56,866 bases of DNA, taken from Candidatus Eisenbacteria bacterium. GTDB taxonomy: Bacteria; Eisenbacteria; RBG-16-71-46; SZUA-252. Numbering within the stretch: the first letter of the stretch is position 1; each line of letters begins with the position of its first letter. A program made the position numbers and the translations under genes. The notes below the pieces were generated by a model that was not told the DNA's origin, searched no databases, and saw only the letters and a list, made by a program, of their open reading frames with translations. The stretch covers positions 1 to 56,866 of the forward strand of contig VBOW01000068.1 in assembly GCA_005893275.1 (NCBI GenBank), read 5' to 3'. Shown here piece by piece: positions 6,417-11,213 of the stretch.

Positions 6417-6775
6417 ATGAAGGCCAAGGTCCTGGTCAAGCCGTTGACCCCGCGACGCTGGGACGACCTCAAGCGGCTATTCCAAGCGAACAGCGTTTGC
6501 CGTGGCTGCTGGTGCATGTACTGGCGGCGGCGGGGGCGTGGCTCACCGTGAAGCTCCTCCGCGCGGCGTCGGCCTACGCCCGCACGCGGGGCGCCAGGAT
6601 CCTCGAGGGCTATCCGAGCGACACGCGCGGAAAACGGACCGCCGATCCGTGGGTGTACACGGGTCTTCTTCCGGCGTTCGAGAAGGCGGGATTTCGGGAG
6701 GTCGCTCGACGCTCGAAGAGCCGGCCCATCGTGCGCCGGCGGCTCTCCCGGCGTTCACCGGGGCGAATGGAGTAG
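6417..6775 (+). pseudogene. GNAT-family N-acetyltransferase, internally deleted and frameshifted
   Basis: The ATG at 6417 opens a frame that reads a typical GNAT start (LTPRRWDDLKRLF, then CRGCWCMYWRRR) and stops at 6551. A different frame, continuous from about 6530 to 6775, reads the usual end of the same family (LLRAASAYARTRGARILEGYP, TGLLPAFEKAGFREVARRS, RPIVRR). The roughly 80-110 residues that normally lie between these blocks, including the acetyl-CoA binding core, are absent, and the two ends are out of frame. The junction is near 6528-6550. It lies between the kinase gene and the YkgJ gene, with the kinase stop 10 bases upstream. Either a real deletion or an assembly collapse could explain it. 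Confidence 0.75.
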
Positions 6776-6778
6776 GCG

Positions 6779-7270
6779 ATGCCGAGAAGAAAAGACAGAT
6801 CCGGCCAGCACAGCGCGAATCCCCATGCTCCGATCGACCGCGAGAGGACCGCGCCCCTGCGGCCTCCGCGGGCGCCCATCGGGCTGCCCCTCCTTCCGAG
6901 CGGGCGGATCGCGTTGCCGGAGGGGAACCCCTGCGAGGGCTGCGACCATTGCTGCCGCTACGTGTCGCTTCAGATCGACCGGCCCCGAAGCCGACGCGAT
7001 TTCGAAAACATCCGGTGGTATCTGCTCCACAAGAACGTTTCCGTGATGATCGACTGGGAGGGGGACTGGCTGATCCAGTTCGACACTCCGTGCGAGTGGC
7101 TCGTGGAGGGAAGATGCACGCACTACGAGCTGCGGCCGGAGATCTGCCGCGACTACGATCCCGCCGAATGCGAGCGTTACGCCGGACCCGGCGAGAAGGT
7201 CCTCCTGCGCACGCCGGACGACCTCGAGCGTTACCTGAACGGCCGGCGGAGGAAGAGCAAGTCGGGATGA
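6779..7270 (+). CDS. YkgJ-family cysteine cluster protein
   Basis: 163 residues. The core shows the CxxCxxCC signature (NPCEGCDHCCRYV, around residues 52-62) and later cysteines in TPCEWL, EGRCTHY, PEICRDY and PAEC, the pattern of the UPF0153/YkgJ family, which probably binds zinc or an iron-sulfur cluster. The N-terminal 40 residues are basic and proline-rich and may be disordered. The stop overlaps the start of the next gene (ATGA at 7267-7270), so the two are probably translated together. No enzymatic role is established for the family. Confidence 0.85.
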   Translation: MPRRKDRSGQHSANPHAPIDRERTAPLRPPRAPIGLPLLPSGRIALPEGNPCEGCDHCCRYVSLQIDRPRSRRDFENIRWYLLHKNVSVMIDWEGDWLIQFDTPCEWLVEGRCTHYELRPEICRDYDPAECERYAGPGEKVLLRTPDDLERYLNGRRRKSKSG

Positions 7271-9192
7271 TGCGGTTCACCGCCGCCATCCTCGTTGCGC
7301 TCCTTCTGGGCGCCGCCCCTGCGTCGGCGCAGGCGCCCGGGGACCGCGAGGGGCTCCGGAGCGGCCCGCGCGTGAAGCGCGACCACGAGATTCGTTGGCG
7401 GGAATGGGGCCCCGCCGCCTTCCAGGAGGCCAGGCGGGAGAAGCGCCTCGTGCTCCTCGACCTCACGGCGGTCTGGTGCCATTGGTGCCACGTGATGGAC
7501 GAAACCTCCTACTCCGACCCCGAAGTGATCCAGACCCTGAACGCCGAGTTCATCCCGATCCGGGTCGACGCCGACCGGCGTCCCGACGTGAGAGATCGCT
7601 ACATCGCGGGGGGCTGGCCCACGACCTCGATTCTGAGCCCCGAGGGCCACGTCCTGGTCGCGCGAACCTACGTTCCCCCCGGCCAGCTCAAGCAAATGCT
7701 CGGCGAGATCCGCGATCTCTACCGCAAGAACAAGACCGATCTGGATCGGAAGATCGCCGAGATGGAGAAGAGCGTTCGGGCCACTTGGCGGAGCGAGCCG
7801 ATCGATTCGGCGTCCCTCGTCCGGGCGGAGGATCTGGTCGACCGGACGATCGACGCGCTCAAGGATTCGGAGGACAAAGAGCACGGCGGGTTCGGCGGGG
7901 AGCCGCGTTTCCACAACCCCGACGCCGTCTCGCTTCTTCTGCGTGTGTCCGCGGCCCGCAAGGACTCGGTGCTCCGTGCGATGGCCGTGCACGCCGTCGA
8001 CGGGCTTCTCCTGCTTCAGGACTCCGTCTGGGGCGGCTTCTACCGCTACGCGACCAAGTCGGACTGGTCCCATCCCCACTTCGAGAAGATGCTCGACGGC
8101 AACGCGCGGGCGATCGAATCGTGTCTCGAGATCCATCGCGCGACCGGGGACAGGAAATACCTCGACGCGGCTCGCAAGGCCGTGCGCTATGTGGACCGCT
8201 GGCTCTGGGATGAGCGCGGCGGTGGTTACTGGGGGAGCCAGGACGCGGACGTCGGGAGCCGCGAGCCCTCGAAGGCGTTCACGGCGGGCGAGGACTATTA
8301 CAACCTGGGCGAAGCCTATCGCCGGAAGCTCGGGGCGCCCGCCGTGGATTCGACCTACTACACCGATGCCAACGCGCGGATGGCCTCGGCGATGCTCCAG
8401 GGTGTGCTCTCGGGGTCATGGGACGAAGCCATGGCGGTGCGGTCGCTCCGGGCGCTCGATCGGCTATGGGCCGAGCAGCGCGCGTCGGACGGGTCGCTCT
8501 ACCACGCGATGGCGGGGGGGCGGGGAATCGCGCCGGGGCTCGCGGAGGATCAAGTGCTCGCGGCTCTGGCGTTCCTCGATGCGTACGAGGTGACGGGGGC
8601 GCCGCGCTATCTCGCCCGGGCGCGCACCCTCGCCGAGTGGACCGCCGCCCATCTGGAAGATCGCGTCGGGGGCGGGTTCCGCTACGCTTCGCTGGACACA
8701 TCGGCCGTGGGGCGACTGCTCGCGGGCGACAAGGCGGGGGACGCGACCGTGGAAGCCGCCACGCTTTTCTTGCGGTTCTACTGGCTCGAGGAACGGGCGG
8801 AGGATCTCGCGACGGCCGAGCGTGCGTTCGCCTACCTGCGATCGGGCGGAGCGGTGGTCATCGATCCTGCCCGCGCCCGGCTCGCTCTGCGCATGACGGC
8901 GACCCCGGTCCGGATCGCGGTCGTGGGCGGCTCGAGCGCCGCCGCGGCGCTCCGGCGAGCCAGCTTTCGTGTCGTGGCCCCCGACCGGGTGCTGAGGTTC
9001 TATCCAAGGGGAGGCCGCGCGGCGCGCTGGGGGGACATTCAATTTCCGGCGAGTCCTGCCACCGCTCTCTACGTGTGCGGCGATCACGCGTGCGCGCCGC
9101 CGATCACCGAACCGGGCCGCGTCGTGTCTCAGGTCAGCGCGTTTCTCAGGGCCGGGGCTGAATCTCGCGCACCAGGTCCATCGGATCCTTGA
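7267..9192 (+). CDS. Secreted SPATA20/YyaL-like thioredoxin-domain protein (DUF255)
   Basis: 641 residues from ATG 7267 (an alternative ATG follows directly at 7270). This start gives a clean signal peptide (AAILVALLLGAAPASAQA). The N-terminal thioredoxin-like domain carries the family hallmark WCHWCHVMDETSYSD, with two CxxC-type cysteines, and GGWPTT, the cis-proline region. The rest resembles the alpha/alpha-toroid of YyaL/SPATA20 proteins (GGFGGEPRFHNPD, GGFYRYATKSDWSHPHFEKML, GGGYWGSQDADV). Most family members are cytoplasmic, so a signal peptide is worth noting. It is coupled to the YkgJ gene upstream and overlaps the convergent BshB1-like gene by 47 bp. The function is probably thiol-redox related; the substrate is unknown. 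Confidence 0.88.
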   Translation: MMRFTAAILVALLLGAAPASAQAPGDREGLRSGPRVKRDHEIRWREWGPAAFQEARREKRLVLLDLTAVWCHWCHVMDETSYSDPEVIQTLNAEFIPIRVDADRRPDVRDRYIAGGWPTTSILSPEGHVLVARTYVPPGQLKQMLGEIRDLYRKNKTDLDRKIAEMEKSVRATWRSEPIDSASLVRAEDLVDRTIDALKDSEDKEHGGFGGEPRFHNPDAVSLLLRVSAARKDSVLRAMAVHAVDGLLLLQDSVWGGFYRYATKSDWSHPHFEKMLDGNARAIESCLEIHRATGDRKYLDAARKAVRYVDRWLWDERGGGYWGSQDADVGSREPSKAFTAGEDYYNLGEAYRRKLGAPAVDSTYYTDANARMASAMLQGVLSGSWDEAMAVRSLRALDRLWAEQRASDGSLYHAMAGGRGIAPGLAEDQVLAALAFLDAYEVTGAPRYLARARTLAEWTAAHLEDRVGGGFRYASLDTSAVGRLLAGDKAGDATVEAATLFLRFYWLEERAEDLATAERAFAYLRSGGAVVIDPARARLALRMTATPVRIAVVGGSSAAAALRRASFRVVAPDRVLRFYPRGGRAARWGDIQFPASPATALYVCGDHACAPPITEPGRVVSQVSAFLRAGAESRAPGPSDP

Positions 9193-9877
9193 TCCGAAGC
9201 GGAGAGGTTGCCAGGAACGACTGGGCGTGGCGCACGCCGATCGGCCAGCCGTGGGTCTGGGACAGGGTTCCAATATATTCGGAAACCTCGGGGACGGCCG
9301 TGGTCGGCTTGGGCTTGTCGGGATTGTGGAACTGCGTCTTGTGGCACGCGAGCGCCGCCATCCACGTATCGAAATATCGGCTCACATCGACCGTGAACGT
9401 CGGGCGCATGCCCGGCGGGATGAAGTAATAGTAGACCGCCTTGGCCTGATGCGGATCCCCCTCCACCGGCGCCTTCGCAAGATGCGCGAGGTTGAACGCC
9501 TGCGCGACGAGAATCCCCGTCTTGAAATGGTCATTGTGTCCGAGGCCGCGCCCGATCGGCAGATCGTAGTAGGGAGCGAAGAGGATCTCGGGTCGGTATT
9601 TCCGTATCGTGGCGGCCACCTTGCAGCGATTCTCGAACGTGTCCTCGATCCGGTTGTCGCCCAGGTCCAGATTGGCCCGCACGTCGAGCTGGAGGATTTT
9701 CGCGGCCTCCGCGCACTCCCGATCCCGCTCTTCCGGAGTGCCCCATCCCATGTCTCCGCGGGTCATGTCCACGATTCCGGTCTTGTGGCCCAAATCCTTC
9801 ATCTTGAGCAGGAGGCCCCCGGCGCCGATTTCGGCGTCGTCGGGATGGGGCCCGAAGACGAGCACGTTGAGCTTCAT
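9146..9877 (-). CDS. bshB1: PIG-L family deacetylase, BshB1-like (bacillithiol pathway type)
   Basis: 243 residues. The metal site HPDD (His11-Asp14) in GPHPDDAEIGAGG, the TRGDMGWGTPEER loop and GLGHNDHFKTG are characteristic of BshB1, the enzyme that removes the acetyl group from GlcNAc-malate to give GlcN-malate in bacillithiol synthesis. The other bacillithiol genes (bshA, bshC) are not in this window, so a different GlcNAc-linked substrate cannot be excluded. The ATG overlaps the stop of the upstream zinc-ribbon gene (ATGA at 9874-9877), indicating one minus-strand operon. The 3' end overlaps the convergent SPATA20-like gene. Confidence 0.85.
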   Translation of the reverse strand: MKLNVLVFGPHPDDAEIGAGGLLLKMKDLGHKTGIVDMTRGDMGWGTPEERDRECAEAAKILQLDVRANLDLGDNRIEDTFENRCKVAATIRKYRPEILFAPYYDLPIGRGLGHNDHFKTGILVAQAFNLAHLAKAPVEGDPHQAKAVYYYFIPPGMRPTFTVDVSRYFDTWMAALACHKTQFHNPDKPKPTTAVPEVSEYIGTLSQTHGWPIGVRHAQSFLATSPLRIKDPMDLVREIQPRP

Positions 9878-10179
9878 TCGCGGTCAGGCTCCTTGGTTTT
9901 GAAAAGCTGATCCAGCTTCGAGCGCGCCGTCGACGCGCGGTCCTTTCCGGCGCCCCCTTTGCCCGCTGGATTGAGGGAAAAATATTCGCAAAAGTTCCGC
10001 CGCTCACGGTCCGTGACCCATTCCGCCTGGGGCTCGCGGCACATGTTGTGCGCGTTCCGGTCGAAGTGCCGGCATTGCACGCAGGCGTGCAGGTCCCGTC
10101 GGCACGAAGGGCACTCCGTGTCCCGGACGATCCGCAGCTTGGGATCGAGCGATGTCCCGCAGAAAAAGCAGGCGCTCAT
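9874..10179 (-). CDS. Small zinc-ribbon protein
   Basis: 101 residues from ATG 10179, chosen because an excellent Shine-Dalgarno sequence (GGAGGTGATC) lies directly upstream and the first residues start the first Cys pair. An in-frame start further up at 10344 would run through non-conserved sequence. Paired cysteines, CFFCG, CPSC, CVQC and later NMCRE and FCEYF, suggest two zinc-binding knuckles. The C-terminal third is basic and low in complexity. It is the first gene of a two-gene operon with bshB1, coupled by an ATGA overlap. No function is known to me; a metal-binding or protein-binding role is inferred. Confidence 0.75.
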   Translation of the reverse strand: MSACFFCGTSLDPKLRIVRDTECPSCRRDLHACVQCRHFDRNAHNMCREPQAEWVTDRERRNFCEYFSLNPAGKGGAGKDRASTARSKLDQLFKTKEPDRE

Positions 10180-10334
10180 CGGATCACCTCCATAGGTAGC
10201 TCTCCTCGCCATGATAGGGAGCCCCGGCGCCGCGCGGCCAGCGCTTTCTAATCCCTCCCTTGACTCGACCCTGGGGGCTGGTGGATCATCGGAGCGACTT
10301 GGTTCTCCCGTCCAATCGGAGGCTTTCGCGACCG

Positions 10335-11213
10335 ATGAATACACGCGCTGGGGGTTGGGTCGCCGGAACGCTTGCCGTGTCCTTGTTCGCCGTGGGCTGC
10401 ATGCAGGCGAAGAAGCCGGTGCCCGCGGGGATCGAATGGAACAAGGCTTTCGACGCGGCGCTGAGCGACGCGCAAGCCCATCACCGGCCGATCCTCCTCG
10501 ACTTCTACACAGACTGGTGAATGTGGTGTAAGGCTCTGGAAGAGTCTACCTACGTCGACCCGACATTCATCCAGTTCTCCAAGCGGTTCACCTGCGCCAA
10601 GCTGAACGCCGAAGTCGATACCACGACGGCCGCGCGGTATCGCGTGCTGAGCTATCCCACCATCATGGTGCTCAACGAGAAGGGGGAGGAGCTGGACCGC
10701 GTCGTCGGCTACTACCGTGCGCCGCAGTTCGTGTCCCAGGTCGAAGACTATCTCGCCGGCCGGAATACGCTCGGCTCGATGATCGCGGAAGAGCCCGCCA
10801 AGCGGGACAGCGCGGAATTCGTCTACCGGCTGGCGGATCGATTCGCGGACCACGGCCTGTTCGACGAGTCGCGGAAACGGTTCCTCCGGTTCGTGACGCT
10901 CGACCCGAAAAACGTGTCGGGCCGCGTGGACGACGCGCTCTACCGGCTCGCCCGCATGGCGCGGAAGGAGCACGACTACGCCTCGGACCGGAAATACGCG
11001 CAGATGATCCTCGATCGTTACCCCGGCAGCGACATGATGAGGCCCGCCTTTCTGGAGTTGGGCCAGGGGTACCGGAAAGACGGTCACCTCACGAAAGCGC
11101 GCACGATCTTCCTGGACTACGCGAAGCGCTTCCCGGATGACGAGGACGCTCCGTGGGCCCGGGAGCAGGCGGACAGCCTCGCCCTGCAGATCGCCAACCG
11201 CCCCGGCGCCTGA
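10335..11213 (+). CDS. Thioredoxin-fold selenoprotein lipoprotein (in-frame TGA read as Sec62) with TPR-like C-terminus
   Basis: The frame runs from ATG 10335 (GGAGG at 10318-10322) to the TGA at 11211 with one internal TGA at 10518-10520. With that codon read as selenocysteine the product has 292 residues. It starts with a signal peptide and a lipobox-like LFAVGC, then a thioredoxin_7-type domain: ILLDFYTDW, then Sec62-Met-Trp-Cys65-Lys, then SYPTIMVLNEKG with the cis-proline. The TGA falls exactly on the first Cys of the CxxC redox site. The last 120 residues form TPR-like helical pairs. A stem-loop right after the TGA resembles a bacterial SECIS. A weak promoter (TTGACT, 18-bp spacer, GATCAT) is possible at 10260-10289. 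It is likely anchored on the periplasmic side of a membrane. A Cys-to-stop mutation is the alternative. Confidence 0.85.
10525..10550 (+). promoter_or_regulatory. Candidate bacterial SECIS element
   Basis: Five bases after the in-frame TGA (10518-10520) the mRNA can fold into a lower stem GGU/ACC (10525-10527 with 10548-10550), a 3-base bulge, and a 7-bp upper stem AGGCUCU/AGAGUCU (10531-10537 with 10541-10547) capped by GGA. The apical loop begins 17 bases past the TGA and has G in its first positions, matching the general form of bacterial SECIS elements, which recruit SelB and Sec-tRNA. The fold was made by eye. Confidence 0.65.

What the first reader, a model, noticed from the sequence alone, without database searches (positions are those of the whole stretch)
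10335..11213. Probable selenoprotein: thioredoxin-fold lipoprotein with Sec-x-x-Cys in place of CxxC
Seen: one continuous frame from 10335 to 11213 is broken only by a TGA at 10518-10520. The codons around it read ILLDFYTDW, TGA, MWCK, so the stop sits precisely where thioredoxin-like proteins carry the first Cys of the redox site. The code on both sides is a coherent signal-peptide/thioredoxin/TPR protein. Known: Sec-for-Cys replacement in UxxC thioredoxin-like proteins is documented in several bacteria and metagenomes. Inference: a membrane-anchored, periplasm-facing selenoprotein with a TPR tail; I know of no characterised protein of this architecture.
Basis: partly seen in the sequence, partly recalled or inferred. 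Interest (0 to 1): 0.85.

Follow-up and report, generated by a model that had tools for sequence, protein, structure and literature searches.

The report
Thioredoxin-TPR lipoprotein selenoprotein in Eisenbacteria
A gene in an uncultured soil and groundwater bacterium has a TGA 'stop' that is almost certainly read as selenocysteine, giving an exported, probably membrane-anchored thiol-redox protein of a domain layout not found among the catalogued selenoproteins.

Summary
In Candidatus Eisenbacteria, one frame (10335-11213) is interrupted only by TGA at 10518, at the first Cys of a thioredoxin CxxC. All 9 family genomes and one from another family keep TGA there; other relatives have TGC/TGT. 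The genome carries selA, selB, selD and a tRNA-Sec with anticodon TCA.

(1) A 30-nt block after codon 63 is identical in all 9 genomes; the next longest invariant run is 6 nt, and synonymous third positions there differ in 0/144 comparisons versus 49% overall. (2) It folds into a hairpin fitting the published bacterial SECIS model. A second Sec-type Trx gene in the same genomes has the same hairpin at the same spacing, with 5 of 7 pairs changed on both sides.

Sec forms also occur outside the class. UxxC thioredoxin-like selenoproteins are a known kind; this architecture matches no curated model above its cut-off. It resembles DsbD-gamma (Trx) and, in layout, the cytoplasmic chaperedoxin CnoX. 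Selenium incorporation and function are untested.

The parts
10318..10322 (+). GGAGG ribosome-binding site, 12 nt before ATG
   Evidence: sequence; A/G-rich RBS-like stretches before several, not all, homologous starts
10335..11213 (+). Selenoprotein gene (292 aa read through the TGA): lipoprotein-type signal, Trx domain, TPR tail
10335..10400 (+). Signal peptide with lipobox-like LFAVGC ending at Cys22; a Cys near this position is present in all 9 family members
   Evidence: sequence and alignment; -3 residue is Ala, a non-ideal lipobox
10431..10754 (+). Thioredoxin domain (about residues 33-140), DsbD-gamma-like; cis-Pro loop YPT at 10653-10661
   Evidence: Pfam; AlphaFold block pLDDT 91-97 and Foldseek hits to the DsbD C-terminal domain, TM(target) 0.70-0.80
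10518..10520 (+). In-frame TGA read as selenocysteine 62 (first residue of UxWC)
   Evidence: invariant TGA in 10 genomes, Cys in other relatives
10524..10553 (+). 30-nt block identical in nine genomes (TGGTGTAAGGCTCTGGAAGAGTCTACCTAC), containing the core of the bSECIS element
10527..10529 (+). Resolving Cys65 of the U-x-x-C pair
   Evidence: invariant in alignment A1
10531..10547 (+). bSECIS upper stem (7 bp, 10531-10537 with 10541-10547) and GGA apical loop (10538-10540), 17 nt after the UGA
   Evidence: model constraints from PMC13188914
10770..11195 (+). TPR tail (residues 146-287, all-helical)
   Evidence: Pfam TPR_14/TPR_6; AlphaFold helices; Foldseek to YbgF TPR domain 2xev, TM(target) 0.87

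Best explanation
The gene encodes a genuine selenoprotein. SHOWN BY SEQUENCE: a TGA at the first active-site Cys codon is conserved as TGA across a bacterial family and replaced by Cys codons in relatives, is followed by a bacterial SECIS-type hairpin under nucleotide-level selection, and lies in a genome with the complete Sec machinery. INFERRED: SelB brings Sec-tRNA(Sec) to the UGA using the hairpin 17 nt downstream. The protein is exported, cleaved before Cys22, lipidated and anchored facing the periplasm. There Sec62 and Cys65 act as a selenol/thiol pair that reduces or isomerises disulfides or other oxidised groups in proteins or small molecules, with the TPR tail binding client or partner proteins. 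Electrons could come from the CcdA-type membrane protein found elsewhere in the genome. My confidence per step: Sec insertion about 0.96; exported and membrane-anchored about 0.85; reductase/isomerase with TPR-bound clients about 0.5. The overall confidence given is for the selenoprotein claim.
For: TGA in 9/9 family genomes plus G025; Cys in L047, L048 and others, with Sec in L101, L103, L105, L112, L113 from bacterial families outside the class. The label changes at least 6 times on the tree (quick tree, several weak branches). 30-nt invariant run versus 6 nt next best; 9/9 aa-invariant degenerate codons there use one codon versus 12/76 elsewhere, Fisher p 7e-7. At 42 nt the hairpins of the nine members are matched or beaten by only 0-13 of 500 synonymous recodings. 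It meets the four published bSECIS constraints (loop 3 nt and stem 7 bp, GG in loop, 17-nt spacing, MFE -14.4 kcal/mol). Same geometry in a second Sec-type gene with 5 of 7 pairs compensated. selB 359 bits, selA 576 bits, tRNA-Sec with TCA anticodon next to selD; tRNA-Sec in 8/9 family genomes. Fold: Trx like DsbD-gamma, TPR like YbgF. CcdA beside a TlpA-like lipoprotein.
Against: No proteomic or selenium data. The stem sequence never varies inside the window's own family, so compensation is seen only against a paralogous family and one distant homologue, which amounts to very few independent events. tRNA-Sec was not found in G003 (91% complete). SECIS-like folds are less clear in L103, L105, L112 and L113. 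Substrate, partner and electron donor are unknown; the lipobox -3 position is Ala.
Confidence: 0.93

Rival explanations
1. Nonsense mutation, pseudogene or sequencing error at one base of a normal CxxC protein.
For: A single TGA differs from TGC/TGT by one base, and the data are metagenome assemblies.
Against: TGA is present in nine family genomes at 59-88% protein identity and in another family. dN is below dS downstream of the TGA. A 30-nt block after it is identical.
Confidence: 0.01
2. Two separate, translationally coupled genes: a 61-aa signal/half-Trx peptide and a 230-aa protein starting at the ATG directly after the TGA (TGAATG).
For: In the window the codon after the TGA is ATG, and a mechanical ORF list splits the gene there.
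Against: The ATG is unique to the window's genome; relatives have ACG, AGC, GGC, ACT, AGG, CAG, CAA or GTG at that codon. Both halves form one Trx fold and one continuous block in the Cys homologues.
Confidence: 0.01
3. TGA is read through as another amino acid (suppression or code reassignment), or serves as a regulated stop producing a short product.
For: Hairpins after stop codons can also promote read-through in other systems (general knowledge).
Against: Ordinary genes in the window end in TGA. The position is the catalytic Cys, for which Sec is the usual replacement. tRNA-Sec, SelA, SelB and SelD are present. The hairpin matches the bSECIS model and recurs in a second Sec-type gene.
Confidence: 0.03
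4. A functional reading within the selenoprotein explanation: it works as an envelope chaperedoxin (CnoX-like), the TPR tail holding unfolding clients while the selenol active site repairs their oxidised thiols.
For: Same domain order as E. coli YbbN/CnoX, the best PDB hit by E-value (1.1e-7). Caulobacter CnoX combines holdase and Trx reductase activity (PMC6282202).
Against: Full-length superposition is poor (TM 0.27, rmsd 23 A). CnoX acts in the cytoplasm with GroEL and DnaK, which are not periplasmic. The TPR_20 model matches only 1 of 12 members.
Confidence: 0.25

Closest known systems
Sec-containing 'thiol:disulfide interchange protein' / Trx-like 2 family (PF13098, cd02953, UxxC; PMC13188914, PMC2398784)
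   Same: Thioredoxin_2 match and DsbD-gamma-like domain with UxxC, Sec replacing the first Cys, many Cys homologues
   Different: The listed family is described by the Trx domain alone; here there is a lipoprotein-type signal and a C-terminal TPR domain
DsbD C-terminal (gamma) domain and TsoB rhodanese/DsbD fusion selenoprotein (NF045694)
   Same: Best NCBIfam matches, covering the Trx domain only (about 62 bits each)
   Different: Far below the curated cut-offs (330 and 805 bits); no match to the rest of either model
CnoX/YbbN chaperedoxin
   Same: N-terminal Trx fused to C-terminal TPR
   Different: Cytoplasmic, SxxC or CxxC, no export signal, different overall arrangement of the domains
Bacterial SECIS elements (bSECIS consensus model, PMC13188914)
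   Same: G in first two loop positions, 17-nt spacing, stem length, energy
   Different: Outer stem and 3-nt bulge are peculiar to this pair of genes; not compared base by base with the E. coli formate dehydrogenase elements

Membership tests
Bacterial selenoprotein | In-frame TGA at a conserved redox Cys, with Sec/Cys alternation in homologues | tested here: met
Bacterial selenoprotein | SECIS hairpin right after the TGA fitting the bSECIS model | tested here: met
Bacterial selenoprotein | selA, selB, selC, selD in the genome | tested here: met
   (selD recognised by its sequence, not by a family search)
Bacterial selenoprotein | Selenium present in the protein | not testable with these tools
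   needs mass spectrometry or 75Se labelling
Trx-like UxxC family (thiol:disulfide interchange, PF13098) | Match to PF13098 above gathering cut-off with UxxC | tested here: met
   35.6 bits versus 27
TsoB / DsbD | NCBIfam score above curated cut-off | tested here: not met
   62.2 versus 805 and 61.7 versus 330 bits
CnoX/YbbN chaperedoxin | Trx domain followed by TPR domain | tested here: met
CnoX/YbbN chaperedoxin | Cytoplasmic (no export signal) | tested here: not met
   hydrophobic N-terminus with lipobox-like Cys in all 9 family members, read from the sequences
CnoX/YbbN chaperedoxin | Overall fold and TPR type of YbbN | tested here: not met
   TM 0.27 over the full length; TPR_20 in 1 of 12 members
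CnoX/YbbN chaperedoxin | Holdase activity and transfer of clients to GroEL/DnaK | not testable with these tools
   biochemistry needed
Bacterial lipoprotein | Signal peptide ending in a lipobox Cys | tested here: inconclusive
   Cys present in 9/9 family members, but the -3 residue varies and is Ala here; no lipoprotein predictor was available

The most novel reading that the evidence does not exclude
A broadly distributed, previously uncatalogued selenoprotein family: exported Sec-Trx-TPR proteins, with a cytoplasmic Sec-Trx sister in the same genomes, acting as selenium-dependent chaperedoxins, so that some bacteria use a selenol to repair oxidised envelope proteins.
Probability: 0.25. Interest if true: 0.7.

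Novelty: new member of a known kind. Interest (0 to 1): 0.48.

Why it matters
It adds a selenoprotein family with an architecture (envelope-targeted Trx + TPR) not seen in the 2026 inventory passages read and not covered by any NCBIfam model above its cut-off, in a phylum for which no selenocysteine paper was found in the library searched. Standard gene calling splits or truncates such genes, so the catalytic half is lost in databases. Two Sec-type genes sharing one hairpin geometry with different stem sequences give a naturally compensated SECIS pair, useful for predicting SelB recognition in uncultured phyla.

Tried and rejected
Pseudogene/error, split genes and code reassignment were considered and rejected (see rivals). 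Plasmid collection: only weak thioredoxin matches below 60% identity. The first translation script ignored strand for '-' loci and was replaced. A first pattern for the second Sec family failed and was corrected. Literature searches for Eisenbacteria with selenocysteine, or for a thioredoxin/TPR selenoprotein, found nothing relevant; only open-licence papers are held. The gene neighbourhood (divergent PIG-L and small Cys-rich protein upstream; YchF, DUF4097 downstream) is conserved in the family but gives no functional clue.

Full report
OBSERVATION. The frame 10335-11213 reads as 292 residues with a single internal TGA, codon 62, inside FYTDW-U-MWCK. Pfam places a thioredoxin domain at residues 37-136 and TPR repeats between about 160 and 272.

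ORGANISM AND RELATIVES. The window lies in a 2.88 Mb genome, 99.65% complete. Its nearest named relatives are Candidatus Eisenbacteria MAGs, and one labelled Latescibacterota. The protein was found in all nine genomes of the family at 59-100% identity, each with one TGA inside. In the phylum, one further TGA form occurs (G025, another family) and two Cys forms pass the same threshold (G022, G023). The alignment puts the TGA in one column throughout, where L047 and L048 have Cys.

WIDER DISTRIBUTION. A profile search of 385 genomes found related proteins in 59 at E <= 1e-25. Sec forms lie outside the class too: L101, L103, L105, L112, L113. L101 also carries a lipobox-like Cys and a UxWC motif. 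On a quick tree of 30 proteins, Sec/Cys changes at least six times; several branches are weak and some rows are long, so the number is rough.

MACHINERY. The genome has selA (576 bits), selB (359 bits), and tRNA-Sec with anticodon TCA (69 bits), with a selD-like gene adjacent (recognised by its sequence, not by a family search). tRNA-Sec was found in 8 of 9 family genomes. In the phylum, 41 of 47 genomes have selB-model hits at E <= 1e-50, 37 of them over the cut-off. SelB is thus common in the phylum, so its presence alone is not discriminating.

SELECTION ACROSS THE TGA. dN is below dS on both sides of the TGA in all pairs tested. The nucleotide pattern is more striking: TGGTGTAAGGCTCTGGAAGAGTCTACCTAC (10524-10553) is identical in all nine genomes, while the next longest invariant run in the gene is 6 nt. 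Fourfold-degenerate third positions differ in 0 of 144 comparisons there, against 49% overall. All nine amino-acid-invariant degenerate codons there use a single codon, against 12 of 76 elsewhere (Fisher p 7e-7). A search allowing three mismatches finds a 27-nt part of the block once per family genome and nowhere else in the phylum. In three Cys homologues of another family, synonymous changes do occur after the Cys codon.

SECIS. The block folds into a 7-bp stem with a GGA loop 17 nt after the UGA, MFE -14.4 kcal/mol for 42 nt. At 42 nt the hairpins of the nine family members are matched or beaten by only 0-13 of 500 synonymous recodings; for the more distant L046 it is 51 of 500 at 42 nt and 29 at 48 nt. 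This meets the published bSECIS constraints (PMC13188914). A second Sec-type gene (motif AAPxU[S/G]GCARLE, no evident signal peptide, Trx domain plus C-terminal repeat-like region) occurs in five genomes of the family and one other. In the five whose hairpin was extracted, the stem has the same length, loop and 17-nt spacing but a different sequence. Across eleven sequences, including L101 from outside the class, 5 of 7 pairs are changed on both sides and 98.7% of cells pair, against 63% in shuffles and 30-56% when slid. This reflects one or few events, because sequences within each family barely vary in the stem. The CTGGAA codons of the loop encode Leu-Glu in both proteins, so loop conservation may be partly protein-driven.

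ALTERNATIVES. A coupled second gene starting at the ATG after the TGA is excluded by the absence of that ATG in relatives. Code reassignment is disfavoured because ordinary genes here end in TGA. An error or decayed gene is excluded by conservation in nine genomes.

STRUCTURE AND MECHANISM. AlphaFold gives mean pLDDT 88.6 with a low-confidence first 29 residues, a Trx fold and an all-helical tail. The Trx part matches DsbD-gamma (TM by target mostly 0.70-0.80) and the tail matches the YbgF TPR domain (0.87). The best full-length layout match is E. coli YbbN/CnoX, but without a common overall arrangement. The inferred picture is an exported, probably lipidated protein with a Sec62-Cys65 redox pair and a client- or partner-binding tail. 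A CcdA-type transporter next to a TlpA-like lipoprotein is encoded elsewhere and could supply electrons. None of these functional steps is shown.

NOVELTY. Bacterial UxxC Trx-like selenoproteins are well documented (PMC2398784; PMC13188914). No NCBIfam model reaches its cut-off, and the 2026 inventory passages read here list no Trx-TPR or lipoprotein entry (12 of 16 passages shown, 'lipoprotein' 0 occurrences). I therefore call it a new member of a known kind with a new architecture.

Noticed in passing
G000:C13:82543-83103 (L076) and L074, L075, L077, L078, L079: A second, apparently signal-less Sec-type Trx protein with a C-terminal repeat-like region (U[S/G]GC motif), in six Eisenbacteria genomes; same hairpin geometry as the window gene in the five checked.
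   Followed up: partly
window 6502-9192 (+): 896-aa DUF255/Thioredox_DsbH protein (CxxC type) close upstream of the selenoprotein gene; conserved neighbour in several family members.
   Followed up: partly
window 9874-10179 (-): 101-aa Cys-rich protein of no Pfam family, divergently placed next to the selenoprotein gene in all nine family genomes, together with a PIG-L deacetylase.
   Followed up: partly
L112 and L113: Related Trx proteins outside the class with a TGA at the same position but weaker or non-standard hairpins downstream.
   Followed up: no
L116 (G000:C31), 945-2211: TlpA-like lipoprotein gene directly followed by a CcdA-type gene; candidate electron supply to envelope thioredoxins.
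   Followed up: no
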